Source of the DNA: Acidobacteriota bacterium
Lineage (GTDB): Bacteria; Acidobacteriota; Terriglobia; UBA7540
NCBI GenBank assembly: GCA_004298155.1
Contig: SCRD01000028.1
Location: forward strand, 62,001-126,000
Length of the DNA: 64,000 bases
Reading direction: 5' to 3'
A program made the translations under genes and the position numbers. Positions 444 through 11,101 of the stretch are shown here, piece after piece. Positions within the stretch are counted from its first letter, which is position 1. Every line of letters begins with the position of its first letter. A model generated the notes under the pieces. That model did not search any database. It had not been told where the DNA came from and worked only from the letters and a program-made list of their open reading frames with translations.

Positions 444-639
444 ATTGCGGTTCCGCATTGACGGGCTGCGCGGCAGATTGCTCATGGCGGCCGCTGGTGG
501 TATTCTGCTGGCAAGCTGGCAAAATTACTGAACCGTGGGTCCCGCCTGCCGGCAGGGTTCCGCTCGTTCCCGGAAGCAAGGTGTTTTTCCTGCACCGGCG
601 TGCGATGGAAAAGCGGTCCGCATCCGCTCGAGGGGGTCT

Positions 640-1974
640 ATGAACGAAGCTGTTTTTGCCCACCGCATTCAGTTTGCATTCACGGTGATGTTCCACTACC
701 TTTTTCCGATTCTCACTATGGGGCTCGGGTTTTTTATCGCTCTTTTTTCAACCCTGAGCCTCATTACAAAGAACAAACGGTATGCCGAAGCGGCCAGCTT
801 CTGGGCCAGGATTTTCGCCGTCAATTTCGCCCTGGGAGTTGTAACTGGAATTCCGCTGGAATTTGAGTTCGGCACCAACTGGAGCCGGTTCTCAAGTTTC
901 GGTGGTGGCGTTTTTGGGCAGACGCTTCCGCTCGAGGGCGTCTACGCTTTCTTTCTAGAGTCAGGTTTTCTGGGAATGTTTCTGGCGGGCGAGAAGCGTG
1001 TTGGCCGGACGTTGCACTGGATATCAGGCCTTGGCGTTGCCGGCGGCTCTCTGCTTTCGGGATATTTCATTGTCGCTACCAACGCCTGGATGCAACATCC
1101 CGTTGGCTATGTGATGGACCCTATGGGCCGTGTTCAATTGAAGTCCTTCTGGGCTGTCCTGTTGAATCCCTACGCGATCTGGCAATACGCTCACACCATC
1201 AACGGGGCGCTGCTGACAGCGGCGTTCGTCATTGGCGGTATCGGCGCTTTCTATCTTCTTTCGGATCGCCACAGGGAATTCGGGATGCTGTCGGTGAAGA
1301 CGGCGGTCGTGGCCGGCGTGATTCTCTCAATCACGCAATTGTTCCCCACAGGAGACTTGAACGGCGCCAGCGTCGTCCGGTATCAACCAACAAAACTTGC
1401 AGCGATGGAGGGCCTTTTTGATACGGTACAGGGCGCCCCGCTGGCGATCATTGGCATGCCGGACACGCAAACCGGCAAACTGATTGACCCCATCTACGTC
1501 CCGCAATTTCTCAGCTTTCTGGCGTACGGTAATTTCCAGGCCACTGTTGATGGACTGAACAGCTATGCGCGAGAGCTCTGGCCGCCTGTCGAGCTAACAT
1601 ATTATTGCTATCACATCATGGTGGGACTGGGAACCATCTTCATCGCCCAGATGCTGATCGGCCTCTTTCTGCTTTGGAGGCGTAAGCTTTACTCAAGCCG
1701 ATGGTTCCTGTGGATGCTGATGCTCACCATCCCATTTCCGTTCATCGCCAATGAGGCAGGGTGGACGGTCGCTGAAGTGGGCCGCCAGCCCTGGCTTGTG
1801 TATGGACTGATGAAGACGGCGGCAGGAACCTCTGCCAACGTCGCCGCCGGTGAAACCATCTTTACCACAATGGGCTTTGCCGGCATTTATGCCACCCTGA
1901 GCATTCTTTTTCTATTTTTGGTGGCCCGAATCATTCATCGCGGACCACAGGAAGGCGCCCCTGTGCATGCCTGA
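640..1974 (+). CDS. cydA: Cytochrome bd ubiquinol oxidase subunit I
   Basis: CydA is the membrane haem subunit of cytochrome bd, a quinol:O2 oxidoreductase with high oxygen affinity that does not pump protons. The start is ATG 640, which follows a GAGGGGG ribosome site; the 35 codons upstream are not conserved-looking. The 444-residue product keeps His19, Glu99, Glu107 and His185, which line up with the haem b595 ligand, the proton-channel glutamates and a haem b558 ligand (His186) of the E. coli protein. The quinol loop after LFPTGDLNG is short, so this is the short-loop or CIO-like type rather than the long-loop E. coli type (522 residues). cydB follows 96 bases later in the same direction, so the two are probably co-transcribed. 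Confidence 0.95.
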   Translation: MNEAVFAHRIQFAFTVMFHYLFPILTMGLGFFIALFSTLSLITKNKRYAEAASFWARIFAVNFALGVVTGIPLEFEFGTNWSRFSSFGGGVFGQTLPLEGVYAFFLESGFLGMFLAGEKRVGRTLHWISGLGVAGGSLLSGYFIVATNAWMQHPVGYVMDPMGRVQLKSFWAVLLNPYAIWQYAHTINGALLTAAFVIGGIGAFYLLSDRHREFGMLSVKTAVVAGVILSITQLFPTGDLNGASVVRYQPTKLAAMEGLFDTVQGAPLAIIGMPDTQTGKLIDPIYVPQFLSFLAYGNFQATVDGLNSYARELWPPVELTYYCYHIMVGLGTIFIAQMLIGLFLLWRRKLYSSRWFLWMLMLTIPFPFIANEAGWTVAEVGRQPWLVYGLMKTAAGTSANVAAGETIFTTMGFAGIYATLSILFLFLVARIIHRGPQEGAPVHA

Positions 1975-2070
1975 TGTCCTGGCAGACTGACCGGAAGGGT
2001 AAATTCGCAAACGCAGGCCGCCTGGTCGTAAAGCCGGGCCAGAAATGATTCCTGCTGATGGAGGATCCGT

Positions 2071-3087
2071 GTGATAAATGTAATCTGGTTTTTTGTGCTA
2101 GGAGCGATGTTGACCGCGTATACCGTCCTGGACGGATACGATCTGGGCGTCGGATCGTTATCTCTCTGGATTGCCAGGAATGATGAGGAGCGCAGGATGG
2201 CGCTCAATTCGATCGGGCCTGTCTGGAACGGCAATGAGGTCTGGCTGGTGGCCGCCGGAGGCATGCTTGTGGTGTCGTTCCCTCGCGTTTACGCCGTGGC
2301 CTTCAGCGGTTTCTATCTGGCCTTCATGCTGGTGCTCTGGCTCCTGGTTCTGCGCGGCGTTTCCATCGAGCTCAGGAGCCAGATCGGGAATCCTCTATGG
2401 CGGGAATTGTGGGATGCCGGCTTCTGGGTGGGCAGCGTGCTGCTGGCACTGCTGCTGGGCGTCGCACTTGGGAACATTGTGCGTGGTTTGCCGATCGGTA
2501 TTGACGGGTACTTCAAGGGAACTTTCGCACAGATGCTGAATCCCTATGCGTTGCTCACAGGCATTCTGACCGTGGTGGTCCTTGCCTGGCATGGAACGAA
2601 TTATCTTCGGGTCAAAACGGAAGGGGCGCTGTTTGCGCGGGCCGTCAGGTGGTCACACAGGCTTTGGTGGATCGCATTGGTGATGGTGGTTGTGGTCACG
2701 ATAGCCACGTTCATGGTGCTTTCCGGCACTCCCCGTACTTTCCACGTTTATCCGGCGGCGTGGGCTGTTCCGTTGCTCATTCTGGCCGGCCTGGTGTGGG
2801 GTGTTTTATCCCGCGGAGCGGAACGCAGCACATCCGCTTTCCGCTCGTCCGCGCTTCTCATCGTTGCGTTGATGCTGACTGCTGCACTGACGATATTTCC
2901 GGATCTGCTTCCCTCAACTGTAAATCCGCAGTATAGCCTGAACATCTACAACTCCGCCTCCTCGCCGCATGCTCTCCGGGTGTCGCTGATCGCCAATGTT
3001 TTTGGCATGATTGCTGTGATTGTATACAGTACTTACGTTCACCGGGTGTTTCACGGAAAGGTGCGCCTGGGGGAAGGCCACTACTAA
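2071..3087 (+). CDS. cydB: Cytochrome bd ubiquinol oxidase subunit II
   Basis: CydB is the second integral membrane subunit of the bd-type terminal oxidase and stabilises the haem-carrying CydA. The 338-residue product begins at GTG 2071, preceded by GGAGGA at about 2060. The N-terminal segment contains the family signature LDGYDLGVG and the WNGNEVWL motif, followed by about eight or nine hydrophobic helices and a tail rich in charged residues. It follows cydA in the usual order. No CydX-like short ORF or cydCD exporter genes were seen after it. The next gene is convergent and starts its 3' end only 32 bases away, with no clear intrinsic terminator between them. Confidence 0.95.
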   Translation: MINVIWFFVLGAMLTAYTVLDGYDLGVGSLSLWIARNDEERRMALNSIGPVWNGNEVWLVAAGGMLVVSFPRVYAVAFSGFYLAFMLVLWLLVLRGVSIELRSQIGNPLWRELWDAGFWVGSVLLALLLGVALGNIVRGLPIGIDGYFKGTFAQMLNPYALLTGILTVVVLAWHGTNYLRVKTEGALFARAVRWSHRLWWIALVMVVVVTIATFMVLSGTPRTFHVYPAAWAVPLLILAGLVWGVLSRGAERSTSAFRSSALLIVALMLTAALTIFPDLLPSTVNPQYSLNIYNSASSPHALRVSLIANVFGMIAVIVYSTYVHRVFHGKVRLGEGHY

Positions 3088-3119: not shown

Positions 3120-3596
3120 TTACTGCGGCCTGACGTTCCTGGACGGCAGGCAGTTGATGCAGGAGAGTTGGTCCAGAGTTGACGTCACCCGATCGCTCAG
3201 CAACTGGACAACCCAGAAGGCGGCGTCCGGGTGATGGCTGAGGAAGCGAAGAAAGTCCTGGCACCTGACAAAGCCCGTCTGGCAGGTGGTGGCCGCCACG
3301 GCCGTTTCCTCGTAATATTTGCCCGAAAGCGCCGCGCTCAACCCCAGGATATCTCCCGGCAGCGCCGTCCCGATAGCCATCGGCCGGCCGTGCGCGTCAG
3401 TTACGGAGAGATCCACGCGGCCCGTGTAGAGAACATAGATGCCAAGTGGCGACTGACCTTCCAGAAAGAACTCGAAGCCCCTGGGGTATACCCTCGGCGC
3501 TTGAATGGCTTTTAACGCCGTAAGGGCAACGGGCGGACCAGGCTTTCTGAGTTTGCCCATAGGGAGCCCCGTTGCGGGCTCGGAAGTTTCTTTCAT
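3120..3596 (-). CDS. Cyclic-nucleotide-binding-domain protein lacking a DNA-binding domain
   Basis: The start chosen is ATG 3594-3596, preceded by GAGGGA; a longer frame to 3662 has no ribosome site. The 158-residue product has a cupin-like CNB domain (EGQSPLGIY, GRVDLS, PGDILGLSA) and the beginning of a dimerisation helix (VVQLLSDRV), then ends with CINCLPSRNVRPQ. The winged helix-turn-helix that normally follows is absent, and cydB leaves no room for it. The sequence is clearly paralogous to the full-length regulator at 4609-5325 (EGQSPQGVF, GRVKLS). Residues that bind cAMP in CRP are not conserved. It could be a ligand-sensing or heterodimer partner rather than a DNA binder. A GTGA-N6-TCAC palindrome lies 59 bases upstream of the start. 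Confidence 0.75.
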   Translation of the reverse strand: MKETSEPATGLPMGKLRKPGPPVALTALKAIQAPRVYPRGFEFFLEGQSPLGIYVLYTGRVDLSVTDAHGRPMAIGTALPGDILGLSAALSGKYYEETAVAATTCQTGFVRCQDFLRFLSHHPDAAFWVVQLLSDRVTSTLDQLSCINCLPSRNVRPQ

Positions 3597-3648
3597 GGCG
3601 CTTCCCTCATGCTGAGATGAGTCTACCCGGCCGGGTGACTGGCGGACA

Positions 3649-3662
3649 GTGACCGCAGTCAC
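3649..3662. promoter_or_regulatory. CRP-type palindrome GTGA-N6-TCAC upstream of the CNB-domain gene
   Basis: The sequence GTGACCGCAGTCAC is a GTGA-N6-TCAC element centred 59 bases upstream of the ATG at 3596 on the minus strand. It is a plausible operator for the Crp/Fnr-type regulator encoded at 4609-5325, whose recognition helix resembles that of CRP. Binding is inferred from sequence only. Confidence 0.55.
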
Positions 3663-3773
3663 CCACTGCAGTGCCGATATTCACAAGCACTTGTGACCCA
3701 GTATCGCGGGAGTTCTATGAACGAACGGCCGCGGAAGGGCGTTTTTGTGGAATTTAATCTTCCCTGTGGATTC

Positions 3774-3965: not shown

Positions 3966-4523
3966 CCCGGGACCTGAAGCAGAGCGAAGGTGGAAGCCAG
4001 GATCCTGTTGATGCTCGCCATCGAAGTAGCAGGAATTGCCAGATTTGTTTCAACAAAGACTGTCCAGGCAAAAGTCACTCCGGATGCGGAAACCTGCATT
4101 GCCTGTGGATTGGGCAAGGTTTCAATATAACCATGTGACAATGGCCATCGGGCATTCCAGTCCGCGATACTTTCCGCCGGCGCGGATGCGGGGTGTCCGA
4201 CCAGATTTCGAGAAATCGGTTCTCAGAGTACCCCTGTGACCCCACGGGCCTGACAATGATCTTCGAAAAGAAAACCAGATGTTAACAGTCGACTCCTTCG
4301 ATCATAATTTGTGGCGGCAGTGTTAAGAAGCATAAGGGGAGTCCTGAGGCGAATGACCTGGCGAGAAAAACTTCGAAGCTGGCGTCAGACCGCGCGTGGG
4401 GTTTACCCAGAAAGAGGTAAACCCGGGAATCGAACGGCGCGTGTGGGGCAAATCGTCGGCCGCTGGGGCGGATTCCCGGGCGGTATGTTAGATACAGTTT
4501 AAATAGTGAATTTGATCCAGGCA
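3966..4523. other. Gene-free stretch with one strong inverted repeat
   Basis: No convincing coding region was found here on either strand. The clearest structure is a perfect 9-bp inverted repeat, GGGTTTACC at 4399-4407 and GGTAAACCC at 4416-4424, with an 8-base loop. No T-run follows on either side, so it is not a standard terminator. On the minus strand there are weak sigma-70-like hexamers near 4489-4505, just downstream of two CRP-type palindromes, so a leftward non-coding transcript is possible. Confidence 0.4.
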
Positions 4524-4537
4524 GTGACCTGCATCAC
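4524..4537. promoter_or_regulatory. CRP-type palindrome GTGA-N6-TCAC, first of a pair
   Basis: GTGACCTGCATCAC matches GTGA-N6-TCAC and is followed by A, as in the CRP consensus. Its centre lies 22 bases, two helical turns, from the centre of the second site at 4546-4559. The Crp/Fnr gene ends at 4609 and reads toward these sites, so they are not in its promoter. Confidence 0.5.
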
Positions 4538-4545
4538 AGCTGATT

Positions 4546-4559
4546 GTGATGTACATCAC
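4546..4559. promoter_or_regulatory. CRP-type perfect palindrome, second of a pair
   Basis: GTGATGTACATCAC is a perfect 14-bp palindrome and fits GTGA-N6-TCAC. With the site at 4524-4537 it forms a tandem pair on the same face of the helix. The only downstream direction free of genes is leftward, through 4500 to 3966. Confidence 0.55.
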
Positions 4560-4608
4560 CTATTTTGCCACTGTCCCTCTCCAGCCCGTACCTACCGTCG
4601 AGAATGAA

Positions 4609-5325
4609 CTAGCCGCCCAGGAAGGCCTCGAGCGCAGCTTTGTTCTGGATCACAAGAGTTGACCCCTTCAGTTCTGCCAGGCGTTTGGACTTGAATTCGC
4701 CCAGGGTGCGGGTCACGGTTTCACGAGAAGTCCCGATAATCTGTCCGATTTCCTCATGAGTCAACGTCAGCTTGACCCGAATCCCCTGCTTGGACTGCTG
4801 GCCTTTGGCTGACCATTCCAGCAGGAAGCGGGCCAGCTTCTCCGGAGCCGATTGTGACAAGCCCAGCGAGCGGACCTGCTCGCAAGCCGTCTGATAACTT
4901 CCGCTCAGTTGCTGCGCAGCATGGACGGAGGCGTCTCCGTGGTCGCGGAGCAGGCGCAGGAAGTCATCCCTCTTTATAAAGTTGACCTGGCATGGTTCAA
5001 GGGTTTCTGCGGTGGCCTGAAAAGCCGTGTCCGAAACCGTTGCGTGCAGTCCCAGGATTTCTCCAGGCTTGACAATCCGCAGAATCAAAGTTTTGCCTTC
5101 GCTGGAAGTCATGGAGAGCTTCACACGGCCCTTGCAAAGCAGAAAGACTCCTTGGGGCGATTGCCCTTCGACAAACAGCACTGCGCCAGCGGGGTAGGCC
5201 GTCGTATACTTGATGGCCTCGAATGCTTTCAGTCCCGCAGGAGAAAGATCACAAAAGAACCCGTCGGCCTTATTCGAACAAGTCTGGCAGTCTTCCACGA
5301 GCTCTAATCCGTATGGAGATCGCAT
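4609..5325 (-). CDS. Crp/Fnr-family transcriptional regulator with FNR-like cysteines
   Basis: The start is ATG 5323-5325, 5 bases after a strong GGAGG that overlaps the end of the STAS gene. The 238-residue protein has a CNB-type sensor domain (about 30-150), a dimer helix and a C-terminal winged helix (about 165-238). Cys13, Cys16 and Cys25 lie ahead of the sensor domain, and Cys112 aligns with FNR Cys122, so a redox-sensitive Fe-S cluster is plausible. The cAMP contacts of CRP are missing (GLHA in place of GELG). The recognition helix SRETVTR keeps the Arg, Glu and Arg that CRP uses to read TGTGA, whereas FNR has Val, Glu and Ser there. It should therefore bind GTGA-N6-TCAC sites, six of which occur in this window. 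Nearby cyd and nar genes fit an oxygen-responsive role. Confidence 0.9.
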   Translation of the reverse strand: MRSPYGLELVEDCQTCSNKADGFFCDLSPAGLKAFEAIKYTTAYPAGAVLFVEGQSPQGVFLLCKGRVKLSMTSSEGKTLILRIVKPGEILGLHATVSDTAFQATAETLEPCQVNFIKRDDFLRLLRDHGDASVHAAQQLSGSYQTACEQVRSLGLSQSAPEKLARFLLEWSAKGQQSKQGIRVKLTLTHEEIGQIIGTSRETVTRTLGEFKSKRLAELKGSTLVIQNKAALEAFLGG

Positions 5326-5326
5326 T

Positions 5327-5623
5327 TCAACCTCCGTTCTTTCCGGCACGTACCCCTGCACGGTTGATTTCATCAATCACATACTTCGTCATTAGACGAG
5401 TTCCCTCAAGACAAACCCCTTTTTCTACCATGCGGGACAGAAGCCTTTTACCTTCAGAGTCGATGTAGGTAACCCCCGATAGGTCAATTAAGACATTTCC
5501 AGAGGAGTGGGGCAAGTGTTCTACCCAACTTCGTTCAAGCTCATCCACCCACGGTCCGGAAAGCTTGCCCTCGAGCTTCACATTTATGCTTCCCGGCGTG
5601 TCGCTATAGGTTATCTTTAGCAT
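5327..5623 (-). CDS. STAS-domain protein (anti-sigma-factor-antagonist-like)
   Basis: This 98-residue protein consists of a single STAS domain. The core strand and helix are visible as VLIDLSGVTYIDSEGKRLL; in SpoIIAA-type antagonists the serine of the D-S pair is the residue phosphorylated by an anti-sigma kinase. It ends one base before the ATG of the Crp/Fnr regulator, whose ribosome site lies inside its last codons, so the two are translationally coupled and form one operon. No kinase or sigma factor gene is adjacent. Possible roles are partner switching or a small sensor that modulates the regulator; the sequence does not decide between them. The start ATG at 5621-5623 has only a weak ribosome site. 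Confidence 0.8.
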   Translation of the reverse strand: MLKITYSDTPGSINVKLEGKLSGPWVDELERSWVEHLPHSSGNVLIDLSGVTYIDSEGKRLLSRMVEKGVCLEGTRLMTKYVIDEINRAGVRAGKNGG

Positions 5624-5702
5624 ATTTCACCGTTCCTGGTACAAGGACAGACTCAAAGGGACATAACTGCTCCAGGTACGCATTCCTCCTGAAGGCTCGA
5701 GC

Positions 5703-5736
5703 CCGCGATTAGTGGGGCGCCGCCCCTCGATCGCGG
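5703..5736. repeat. Intergenic nested stem-loop between two minus-strand genes
   Basis: CCGCGAT at 5703-5709 pairs with ATCGCGG at 5730-5736, and inside it GGGGC (5714-5718) pairs with GCCCC (5722-5726). It lies between the receiver-like gene (ends 5800) and the STAS gene (starts 5623), both on the minus strand. No T-run follows, so it may be an mRNA processing or stabilising structure rather than a terminator. Confidence 0.5.
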
Positions 5737-5799
5737 CTGCGGCCTGAAGTCGCTCCTCCGGTTTGCCAATCCCGGTACTGGTCAAAAAAGCCTCCCGAT

Positions 5800-6216
5800 T
5801 CAAGCCACCGGCGGAGCCGTCAGGTCCTGCTTTACGCTGATCAGTTCTTTATAGATCGCAGACCGAAGAATTCGCGCAAGGTCGGAAGTCAGAAACGGGG
5901 GCGTTATAAAGTCGAAAGCCCCTCTTCCGAGCACATCCAGGTAAAGCTTCACGTCAACCAATCGGGAAACCACGATGACCGGCAAATAGTTCTTCGATTC
6001 CTGCGCCAGCTCCAATACCTTGTCCCATCTGCCGTCCTGCAGGTTCGTCCCTGTGAAAACCATGTCGATTGTGCCGTGTTTCCTCAGAAGCAAGGAAGCT
6101 TCCTTGCAATTTCGCGCTTGAACAATTCTTACGTTGAGAGACTTCAGAGCCCGAGTCAGATGGTTGAAAGTCTCATCCTGCGCGTGGACCAGCAGTGCAT
6201 TGATCTGCTCCGCCAT
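5800..6216 (-). CDS. Degenerate response-regulator receiver protein
   Basis: The 138-residue product has the length and alternating pattern of a stand-alone receiver domain: NALLVHAQDE at the first strand, IDMVFTGTNLQDG at the third and GAFDFITPPF at the fifth. The residue that would be phosphorylated (Asp in DxxxxD) is Gly56, and the conserved Lys of the K-P motif is replaced by Thr-Pro-Pro. It is therefore unlikely to be a conventional phospho-acceptor and may work by protein contact only. Start ATG 6214-6216 follows GGGGAAG. It lies between the sigma-54 activator upstream and the STAS-Crp/Fnr pair downstream, all on the same strand, which suggests a shared signalling role. Confidence 0.75.
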   Translation of the reverse strand: MAEQINALLVHAQDETFNHLTRALKSLNVRIVQARNCKEASLLLRKHGTIDMVFTGTNLQDGRWDKVLELAQESKNYLPVIVVSRLVDVKLYLDVLGRGAFDFITPPFLTSDLARILRSAIYKELISVKQDLTAPPVA

Positions 6217-6430
6217 GGTGTCTTCCCCGATCTTTCACCTTTCGCCCGGCTCTCTGGCCGAGCAGACTGGAAGCCCTGCAGATAGAGAAGAGCACTCTTC
6301 GCTCCAAACACTCGAGGCTTTGGTCTCTTATTTGTACTGTAGATACAATGACTTAGAAGCTTGGTTTGGATGATGAACGTTGGGTCGAGTGAAGAACTGT
6401 GACGCTAAGCTACCAGGTGACGATATTTCG
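6217..6430. other. Intergenic region upstream of the receiver-like gene
   Basis: This holds an inverted repeat TTGTA (6332-6336) and TACAA (6344-6348) with a 7-base spacer, and a second one, TGACGA (6418-6423) with TCGTCA (6428-6433), that overlaps the stop codon of the sigma-54 activator gene. Either could be an operator; neither matches a regulator that I can name. Confidence 0.3.
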
Positions 6431-8788
6431 TCATGAAGAAGAATTCTTGTTGATTTCCCCGCGCGTAATCCCCAGCTTCCTCATCTTGGAATTAAGTGTT
6501 GTTCGCTTTAGCCCCAGGAGGGCTGCTGCGCCATTGGGGCCACTGATAATCCCCCGTGACTGTCTCAACATCCGAAGGATGTGTTCGCGCTCAGCGTCTT
6601 CTAGAGTTCCAGCGGTTTCTCCATCACCCTTTTCACCCTCGATCGGCGCCAGTTCTGCCAATGGAACGCGTAGAACCGGTCCCGGAGACAAGATGACTGC
6701 CCGCTCTATAATATTCTCAAGTTCGCGAACATTGCCCGGCCAGTGCCACCGGACAAGGGCCTCCATTGCTTCCGGGGGAATGATCTCAATGCGCCGGTGC
6801 ATTCTATCTGCGTGTTTCTGCGCAAAGTACCGGACCAGAATGGGGATATCCTCGGCGCGCTCCCTCAAGGGGGGCACCGTGATGGGGAAAACTCTGAGGC
6901 GGTAATAAAGGTCGCTTCGAAACTGCCGGTCGGCGACCATCCGGGCCAGGTCACGATTGGTTGCCGCCAGCAGCCGAACGTCCACTGGAATCGTCCGCGT
7001 GCTGCCCAGCCGCTCAAACTCTTTTTCCTGGAGCGCCCGCAGAAGTTTGGGCTGAAGTTCAAGCGGGATATCTCCGACTTCATCGAGAAAGAGAGTTCCC
7101 TCGTGGGCAAGTTCCAGTCGGCCGATTTTTTGCGAGATGGCCCCGGTGAAGGCCCCCTTCTCATGGCCGAAGAGCTCGCTCTCCAGCAGGCCCGTGGGGA
7201 TTGCAGCGCAGTTGAGCTTGACGAAGGTGCGATCGCGCCGCGGGCTTAGATCGTGAATAGCCCGAGCAATCAACTCCTTTCCCGTCCCGGTCTCGCCTAG
7301 AATCAAGACGGTGGCGTTAGTGGGACCGACAGATTCCACCTGCTTCAGGATTCGCTTGAGGACTGGGCTTTCTCCGATGATCTCCTCAAAGTGATATTCG
7401 GTCCTGATTTCTTCTTCCAGATAAAGTTTTTCTTCGGCCAGCCGCTCTTTCAGCTCCGCCACCTTGCGATAAGTCATCGCGTTATCCAGAGCAATGGCAA
7501 CGTGGCCTGCCACCTGTTGAAGCAGGTCTACTTGTTGCGTTCCAAACGCGCCTTTCAGCCGGCTGACAAGGTTCAGCGTCCCGAGCACGCGGTCCTGCGT
7601 AATGAGCGGCAGGAAGCAGGCCGACTTCACGCCTCCAGCCGCCAGGCGGTCAGCAGCTCTCGATCTGGCAGCGCCGCTTTCAAGATCATTGAGGACCAGC
7701 GGCTGGCGGGAATTCATCGCGCATCCCGCCAGGGCCTCCTGGGCAGGTGAAAGCATCTCTTTTCCCAGCGCGGATTCTTTGTCGGGATGTTCCAGGGAAA
7801 GGAGCCGGAGATCCTTGCTATCAGGCCCATAGAGAGCCAGCGATGCGTATTCGTGCGGCATGATCCGGCGAAGCGTTGCCGAGATCGCAGTGAAAAGTTC
7901 CCGCACATCCAGGTTGGATAGCAGGACCATGCTGATTTCCAGCAGAAGCGCTTCTTCTGCTTTTTTCCGTTGCGTAATGTCGGTAGAGATGCCCGCCACG
8001 GCGTAAGGCCTCCCCTGGGGATCGTACAGCGGGACCTTGATCGAAATGTAGGTGTGTATGCTGCCCGTGTGCGTAACAACTTCTTCGAATTCCAGCGGGG
8101 CCGCTGCCTCCAGAACCTTATGGTCATTGGCGCGCAGGGTATCCGCCATCTCTTTGGGGAAGAGATCGTAATCGGTCTTGCCTTTTGCCTGGCCCTTCGG
8201 GATGTTGTAGAGCTCCTCGAAGCGGCGGTTGACGCGGAGGTATCGGCTTTCGAGGTCCTTGACAAAGATGACGGTGGTGGAGTTGTCCAGAATACTCTGG
8301 AGCTGTTCTTCGCTTGTGCGTAGTGCGTCCTCAGCCTGCTTACGCCGTGTGATGTCACGAACTACGCTTAGCACGATCGTGCCCTTACGGGTTTCAATCG
8401 GGCTCAACATGATTTCGACAGGAAATTCACGTCCGTCTTTGTGTTTCGCAAGCAGTTCCAGCCCGCTGCCCATGGTTCTCAGGTGGGGCCCAGCCTGATA
8501 ATCGCTGCGGTAGCGCTCATGTGCTTTGCGGAACCTGTCCGTGACGAGGATCTCAATGGGCTGGCCCAGCAATTCAGAACGAGAATATCCAAACATCTTT
8601 TCGGTCTGGGCGTTTACCCGCGTAATCAGGCCTTTCGAGTCCACAACCAGGACGCTGTCGGGTGACGCCTCAAAAAATTGCTCGAACAGGGCTGGTGTTT
8701 CTTCCTGTCCGTTTCCTGCTCCTTCTGCAGGAGTCTGATCGTTTTGTGACCGAAGAGTTTCCTGATTGGGTGCGTCACTTGAAGCCAC
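6431..8788 (-). CDS. Sigma-54-dependent activator with PAS-PAS-GAF sensor region
   Basis: This is an enhancer-binding protein that would activate RNA polymerase carrying sigma-54. In order it has two PAS domains (about residues 30-150 and 165-280), a GAF domain (about 290-440), the AAA+ module and a Fis-type helix-turn-helix at the C-terminus. Walker A (GETGTGKE), the sigma-54 contact loop GAFTGA and Walker B ([10 protein letters not shown]) are intact. There is no receiver domain, so it senses directly through PAS/GAF, as FhlA-type proteins do. I place the start at GTG 8786-8788, preceded by GAGG; the frame extends to 8926, but those 46 codons look non-coding. Its targets are unknown; no clear sigma-54 promoter was found nearby. 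Confidence 0.9.
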
Positions 8789-9594
8789 AGCTACCTCGTG
8801 CCCAAGAGCCCGTTGGAACTTGCGGCCGTGCCAGGTGTACCTGCCTTCTCGCCGGTGAGTTCCTGGCAATTCAAATGGTTGCGGCCTGGGCGCAAAGAAA
8901 CTTTTGAATACGAACGAAGCATGCACCCTGGCGCCATAGACGCAGCAAGGGGAAGTCGGGTTTCATTAAAAAGATTATTCAGCACAAGGGATTGGCGGGC
9001 TTGCTTCACCCATCCGGCAGGCGTGTTTTCCACAACTGTCGTCGCCCACTCCAATCCCTGAAAAGAGCTGCAGAAAGAGTCGTCGGGAAAGTCAAGCCCG
9101 GCGTTCAACCGAAGAGGGCGCGCTAATTGCTGCAAATGATTATACGTGCGCCTGTGCATTGAGCACGGACCCCCGTTTTCTCGAAGCCTCAGGTTAAACG
9201 CTGCCTTCCCAGCCATGCCCCTGCACAAGACCCTTGGCAGGATACCTATGTTTTTACCATATCATTGCCGCCTGCTGGCCATCAAGGATTGGGTATGAGG
9301 GAGTGGACGAGCACGATCGTCCCCGGGGGACTCGGGCCGGAGAGTAACTCGGGAGGGTGGGAGCGAAACGGCCGCGTTAAGTCGCTGGCCTTGCGGAGCT
9401 CTGCGCCTGCTGCCGCTTCCTGGCTCCGCTTATTTGTAGCTTCGTTTTCGCTTGCGTCCACCCTCCTCCTAACTGCAGGGTCGCTCTTTCACTCCCTTTT
9501 TTCGGTGACGGCGGTCACAAGGTTTGGTGATTCGAACCGCCGGCCGCAACTGCCGATGAAGGCTGATTGCTTTGCATTCAGGAGTACCGCCGTT
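8789..9594. other. Long gene-free stretch with one CRP-type palindrome
   Basis: No ORF in this stretch shows a recognisable protein family or a good ribosome site. The one element that stands out is the GTGA-N6-TCAC palindrome at 9505-9518. The stretch may hold a small RNA or the promoter region of the sigma-54 activator gene. Confidence 0.4.
9505..9518. promoter_or_regulatory. CRP-type palindrome GTGA-N6-TCAC in a gene-free stretch
   Basis: GTGACGGCGGTCAC, followed by A, fits the same motif as the other five sites. No gene starts nearby: the small membrane gene ends toward it at 9595, and the sigma-54 activator begins more than 700 bases to the left. Confidence 0.45.
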
Positions 9595-11085: not shown

Positions 11086-11101
11086 TGTGAGCACGGTCAC
11101 A
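11086..11101. promoter_or_regulatory. Perfect CRP-consensus palindrome between two divergent usp genes
   Basis: TGTGAGCACGGTCACA matches TGTGA-N6-TCACA exactly. It sits near the middle of the 348-base divergent region, about 168 bases from the left start (10925) and 180 bases from the right start (11274), so one regulator dimer could serve both genes. Confidence 0.65.

What the first reader, a model, noticed from the sequence alone, without database searches (positions are those of the whole stretch)
4609..5325. Regulator with an FNR-like sensor and a CRP-like DNA-reading helix
The protein has three N-terminal cysteines (13, 16, 25) and Cys112 aligned with FNR Cys122, while the cAMP contact residues of CRP are absent. 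The recognition helix SRETVTR keeps the three residues CRP uses to read TGTGA. Such a hybrid would sense oxygen but bind CRP-type sites. Cysteine spacing (x2, x8) differs from E. coli FNR (x2, x5), so the cluster type is not certain.
Basis: partly seen in the sequence, partly recalled or inferred. Interest (0 to 1): 0.65.

Follow-up and report, generated by a model that had tools for sequence, protein, structure and literature searches.

The report
Acidobacterial oxygen-type regulator using CRP sites
This soil-bacterium gene encodes a probable oxygen or redox sensor that acts at the DNA sites normally used by the sugar-response regulator CRP; its metal-binding cysteines appear to be a different set from the classic sensor FNR, and relatives often carry a second copy that has lost its DNA-binding half.

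Summary
The gene is real (minus strand, 238 aa, Crp/Fnr family, Acidobacteriota). The hybrid idea is half right and half in need of correction. DNA side, strongly supported: TGTGA-N6-TCACA sites are about 20-fold enriched upstream of orthologues, FNR boxes are at chance, and exact sites are about 5 times denser in genomes that have an orthologue. In its own genome they precede hemA, a radical-SAM gene, multihaem cytochromes and universal stress proteins. Sensor side: C13/C16/C25 are conserved, but the claimed fourth ligand is not. When other FNR proteins are aligned, FNR Cys122 falls on Asn115 and Cys112 on CRP's own Cys92. Cys64 instead tracks the N-terminal triad (148/150 with it, 2/42 without). 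Best reading: an FNR-like Fe-S (or other thiol/metal) sensor with ligands C13/C16/C25/C64. The surprise is a paralogue lacking the helix-turn-helix, encoded just downstream in about a third of loci and keeping the same tetrad: a possible sensor-only partner. In this window that twin (3120-3596) has lost the tetrad. Metal binding could not be tested. Fe-S Fnr proteins with CRP-like sites are known in Bacillus, so this is a new variant of a known kind.

The parts
4609..5325 (-). Crp/Fnr-family regulator (238 aa): N-terminal C13-x2-C16-x8-C25, beta-roll C64, recognition helix S200-RETVTR
5251..5289 (-). codons of the N-terminal cysteine triad C13/C16/C25
   Evidence: sequence; conserved in 79-80 of 80
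5134..5136 (-). codon of Cys64, proposed fourth ligand (co-conserved with the triad)
4708..4728 (-). recognition helix SRETVTR, CRP-type
4545..4560 (.). CRP-type site TGTGATGTACATCACC, first of a tandem pair 22 bp apart just 3' of the gene
   Evidence: equivalent tandem pairs in G002 and G014
4523..4538 (.). CRP-type site AGTGACCTGCATCACA, second of the tandem pair
3670..3685 (.). weaker CRP-type site (2 mismatches), first of a second tandem pair upstream of the twin
   Evidence: same spacing in G002 (L076 8175/8197)
3648..3663 (.). weaker CRP-type site (2 mismatches), about 60 bp before the twin's likely ATG
3120..3596 (-). sensor-only paralogue ('twin'): beta-roll plus dimer helix, no HTH, tetrad lost in this genome (ORF extends to 3662; the ATG at 3596 has a Shine-Dalgarno)
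11086..11101 (.). perfect CRP-type site TGTGAGCACGGTCACA between two divergent universal stress protein genes
5327..5623 (-). STAS-domain gene directly upstream; conserved neighbour in close relatives

Best explanation
An FNR-like, cAMP-independent Crp/Fnr regulator of Acidobacteriota. It senses oxygen or redox state through an N-terminal Fe-S centre held by C13, C16, C25 and, probably, C64 of the beta-roll rather than C112. In the reduced/holo state the dimer binds TGTGA-N6-TCACA through R201/E202/R206. It controls its own gene or operon, the adjacent sensor-only twin, and genes for haem synthesis, multihaem cytochromes, universal stress proteins and, in relatives, pyruvate:ferredoxin oxidoreductase. 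Shown here: gene, conservation, motif enrichment, motif-regulator co-occurrence, nearby target genes, co-conservation of C64 with the triad. Inferred: that the tetrad binds a cluster, which signal it reads, the direction of regulation, and that this protein (not a paralogue) occupies the sites.
For: Conservation: C13 79/80, C16 80/80, C25 80/80, C64 79/80, C112 74/80, R-E-x-x-x-R 80/80. Triad versus C64 in 192 homologues: 148/150 with, 2/42 without; C112: 96/150 versus 16/42. On a tree, triad and C64 each change 10 times, C112 27 times; in the 4 independent pairs on supported branches C64 follows the triad in about 3 and never opposes it. Sensor-only twins that have the triad keep C64 but not C112. 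Footprint: 41 of 79 orthologue upstreams hold a TGTGAT-N4-ATCACA match with at most 2 of 12 mismatches, 0.6 expected in shuffles; FNR-type matches are at chance. 70 TGTGA-N6-TCACA sites (at most 1 mismatch) in the 300 bp upstream, about 3/kb, versus about 0.13/kb elsewhere in the loci. Logo TGTGA[GT]GTANRTCACA. Exact-site density median 1.62 versus 0.30 per Mb in genomes with/without an orthologue, p 9e-9; within the family p 3e-4; control pattern equal. No Rex in the genome. Targets: hemA, radical SAM, multihaem cytochromes, Usp; PFOR, NapC/NirT, radical SAM-SPASM in relatives.
Against: No iron or cluster data. AF2 gives the N-terminal 20 residues pLDDT below 60 and no coordinates were available, so it is untested whether C64 can reach C13/C16/C25. 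The association of C64 with the triad is only weakly independent after correction for descent (sign test p 0.25). Paralogues without the triad can carry the same R-E-R helix and could share the sites. Three genomes of family f9 have many sites without a close orthologue. In this window the sites lie 3' of the gene, not directly upstream.
Confidence: 0.6

Rival explanations
1. One reading: classic FNR [4Fe-4S] ligated by C13/C16/C25/C112, with CRP-type DNA reading.
For: Pairwise alignment puts C112 on FNR C122; C112 is present in 74/80 close orthologues; P. denitrificans FnrP has ligands 14/17/25/113 (PMC4771820).
Against: With FnrN/Anr-type proteins included, C122 aligns with N115; CRP has Cys in the C112 column; C112 varies while C64 does not.
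Confidence: 0.15
2. The tetrad binds zinc or acts as a thiol/disulfide switch: a redox or structural site without an Fe-S cluster, on a CRP-type DNA reader.
For: Spacing x2-x8 matches no proven FNR known to me; four co-conserved cysteines are also compatible with Zn or disulfides.
Against: Predicted targets are haem, cytochrome, PFOR and Usp genes, as in FNR/ANR regulons; spacing variants (x5, x7) are known in Fe-S FNR proteins (PMC4771820, PMC7713065).
Confidence: 0.25
3. The TGTGA sites belong to another regulator (a true CRP, a Cys-less paralogue or Rex), and the protein's own specificity is different.
For: Paralogues in the same genome have R-E-x-x-x-R helices; family f9 has sites without a close orthologue.
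Against: Rex is absent and the motif lacks Rex's A6/T11; sites concentrate upstream of this very gene; motif density follows presence of the gene, 12 and 16 versus 2 in the same genus; R180->G3 rule (PMC1274295).
Confidence: 0.1

Closest known systems
E. coli FNR / alphaproteobacterial FnrN, FnrP, FnrL
   Same: N-terminal C-x2-C-xn-C before a Crp/Fnr beta-roll, no cAMP residues, FNR-like target genes
   Different: third cysteine x8 (FNR x5, FnrN/FnrP x7); position of FNR C122 is Asn115; a conserved C64 instead; CRP-type recognition helix and sites rather than TTGAT-N4-ATCAA
Bacillus Fnr (B. subtilis, B. cereus)
   Same: Fe-S Crp/Fnr regulator; from general knowledge it acts at TGTGA-type sites, so the combination already exists
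   Different: its cluster uses three C-terminal cysteines plus an Asp (PMC3520743); here the cysteines are N-terminal
E. coli CRP, Corynebacterium GlxR
   Same: recognition residues R180/E181/R185 and TGTGA-N6-TCACA; best structural matches
   Different: cAMP contacts absent, N-terminal cysteine motif present
Desulfovibrio HcpR
   Same: Crp/Fnr regulator of anaerobes with wTGTGAnnnnnnTCACAw (PMC1274295)
   Different: nitrosative-stress regulon (hcp); the tetrad was not looked for in it here

Membership tests
Crp/Fnr superfamily | cNMP-binding-type beta-roll plus Crp-type HTH | tested here: met
   Pfam PF00027 and PF13545 above cut-off; fold search
FNR (E. coli / FnrN type) | N-terminal cysteine triad C-x2-C-x5/7-C | tested here: inconclusive
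   triad present but with x8 in 79/80
FNR (E. coli / FnrN type) | fourth ligand at the Cys122 position | tested here: not met
   Asn115 at that column in all 7 alignments with other FNRs
FNR (E. coli / FnrN type) | oxygen-labile [4Fe-4S] cluster | not testable with these tools
   needs anaerobic protein
FNR (E. coli / FnrN type) | recognition of TTGAT-N4-ATCAA | tested here: not met
   FNR-type sites at chance upstream of orthologues; helix has R201 instead of V208
CRP (cAMP receptor protein) | cAMP contact residues | tested here: not met
   R82->F, S83->Q, T127->A, S128->C
CRP (cAMP receptor protein) | TGTGA-N6-TCACA specificity | tested here: met
   by footprint and genome co-occurrence, not by binding assay
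Bacillus-type Fnr | C-terminal cysteines plus Asp ligand | tested here: not met
   no cysteine after residue 148
Rex | Rex protein present and A6/T11 in the motif (for the owner of the sites) | tested here: not met

The most novel reading that the evidence does not exclude
A third FNR architecture (cluster on C13/C16/C25/C64) that works as a two-protein module: a full-length CRP-site regulator and a co-encoded, co-regulated sensor-only twin that carries the same metal/redox site, dimer helix and a basic tail but no HTH, and that tunes the regulator by forming DNA-binding-defective heterodimers or by competing for clusters.
Probability: 0.3. Interest if true: 0.78.

Novelty: new variant of a known kind. 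Interest (0 to 1): 0.55.

Why it matters
It gives a testable model for oxygen control in Acidobacteriota, abundant soil bacteria in which I found no studied FNR-type regulator. It corrects the ligand prediction, so that the first mutants would be made at C64 as well as C112. And it reveals a conserved Crp/Fnr sensor protein without a DNA-binding domain, which suggests naturally built heterodimeric control in a family described as homodimers.

Tried and rejected
Rex as owner of the sites: rejected (no Rex gene; motif differs). The twin as a sequencing frameshift or pseudogene: rejected; same end in many loci, no convincing HTH remnant downstream in the 12 loci checked (best tblastn E 0.04), dN/dS about 0.02-0.16 (that script crashed before testing the window's own twin for a remnant, where the cydB end leaves little room). 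Asn/Asp115 as fourth ligand: not conserved in twins. AF2 on the full protein gave good confidence but no coordinates, so cysteine distances could not be measured; AF2 on a single twin was useless (pLDDT 36). Rfam gave nothing in the region. Literature searches for an acidobacterial FNR or an HTH-less Crp/Fnr found nothing relevant in the held library, which lacks most subscription papers.

Full report
WHAT IS THERE. The finding sits at window 4609-5325 on the minus strand: a 238-residue Crp/Fnr protein (PF00027, PF13545) from a genome of Acidobacteriota. The closest named relatives are MAGs of Acidobacteria/Terriglobia, one of subdivision 13. Cysteines are at 13, 16, 25, 64, 112 and 148. The cAMP contacts of CRP are absent and the three CRP recognition residues are present. 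The genome has five more homologues, among them a truncated one at window 3120-3662.

SENSOR SIDE. In pairwise alignments C112 falls on FNR C122, but CRP's own Cys92 is in that column, and the alignment needs a three-residue gap in FNR. Adding FNR/FnrN/Anr-type proteins (L161-L164) moves FNR C122 onto query N115 in all seven MAFFT runs. Across 80 orthologues the near-invariant set is C13/C16/C25/C64, while C112 is lost in 6 and in several further class relatives that keep the tetrad. Across 192 homologues the N-terminal triad and C64 go together, 148/150 with the triad and 2/42 without. These rows are not independent. On a tree built without the C64 and C112 columns, triad and C64 each change 10 times and C112 27 times. 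Only four independent contrasts lie on supported branches, about three concordant and none opposed. So the link is strong in counts and modest after correction for descent. From general knowledge, FNR residue R72, aligned with C64, belongs to the same surface patch (activating region 1) as T118 and M120, close to C122. That makes a centre bridging the N-terminal loop and C64 plausible in geometry, but I could not confirm this in the held library and did not measure it.

DNA SIDE. A published specificity rule ties R180 to G at position 3 of the site, i.e. TGTGA (PMC1274295). R201, E202 and R206 are invariant. Upstream of the orthologues, 41 of 79 regions of 300 bp hold a TGTGAT-N4-ATCACA match with at most 2 of 12 mismatches, against 0.6 in mononucleotide shuffles; FNR-box matches are close to the shuffles. 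Density of TGTGA-N6-TCACA is about 3 per kb upstream and 0.13 per kb elsewhere in the same loci. The logo of 43 distinct sites is TGTGA[GT]GTANRTCACA, which does not fit Rex (no A at position 6), and Rex is absent from the genome. Exact sites are about five times denser in genomes with an orthologue, also inside the family, with equal control patterns. In the same genus the counts are 12 and 16 with, 2 without. In the own genome, exact sites number 12 against 2 for the control pattern. They lie before hemA, a radical-SAM gene resembling alternative haem synthesis enzymes, multihaem cytochromes and universal stress genes, one of these pairs in the window at 11086. In relatives they lie near PFOR, NapC/NirT, radical SAM-SPASM and ferredoxin genes. 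This is the content expected of an oxygen-responsive FNR/ANR-type regulon. The direction of control is not shown.

THE TWIN. About 27 of 80 loci carry a homologue ending just before the HTH, mostly 26-235 bp downstream on the same strand. Most of these keep C13/C16/C25/C64, lack C112, and end in a short basic tail. Purifying selection acts on them (dN/dS about 0.02-0.18), and no convincing HTH remnant follows in the loci tested. Many have a CRP-type site of their own in the gap. In the window and its nearest relative the twin lacks all four cysteines, sits about 0.9-1.4 kb downstream, and is preceded by a weak tandem pair of sites. Because Crp/Fnr proteins act as dimers through the helix that the twin retains, heterodimer inhibition is the obvious hypothesis. 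It is untested.

WHAT IS KNOWN. Two Fe-S FNR layouts are recognised: N-terminal (Gram-negative) and C-terminal (Gram-positive) (PMC12937710; PMC3520743). Third-cysteine spacing already varies (x5, x7; PMC4771820, PMC7713065). An Fe-S Crp/Fnr protein on CRP-like sites is therefore not new in kind. The N-terminal tetrad with C64 and the sensor-only twin appear new to me, within the limits of an open-access library.

VERDICT. New variant of a known kind. My estimates: DNA specificity about 0.9, Fe-S about 0.65, C64 as ligand about 0.65, twin as antagonist about 0.3.

Noticed in passing
window 4390-4501, minus strand: About 90 nt of non-coding DNA, 98% identical in G002 and 91% over 66 nt in G014, begins about 30-40 bp after the tandem CRP-type sites and ends at a strong hairpin; fold z-score -2.3, no Rfam match. 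Candidate regulator-controlled small RNA.
   Followed up: partly
window 3120-3596, minus strand: HTH-less Crp/Fnr paralogue under weaker purifying selection than the regulator (dN/dS about 0.15 versus 0.014 against G002, dS near saturation), with a C-terminal CINC not found in G002.
   Followed up: yes
window 5327-8926, minus strand: Conserved upstream neighbours: sigma-54 activator with PAS/GAF, receiver domain, STAS domain, then the regulator; in L087 and L132 a CRP-type site heads this set opposite a Usp-like gene.
   Followed up: partly
window 535-3087, plus strand: Cytochrome bd oxidase genes cydA/cydB convergent with the twin, also in G002; no good CRP-type site upstream within the window.
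   Followed up: no
orthologue upstream regions, e.g. L130 and L117: Sites come as a regular triple: two 22 bp apart (two helical turns) and a third about 49 bp further.
   Followed up: no
genomes G046, G054, G061 (family f9): 12-20 exact TGTGA-N6-TCACA sites although no close orthologue was found; another Crp/Fnr regulator probably uses them.
   Followed up: no
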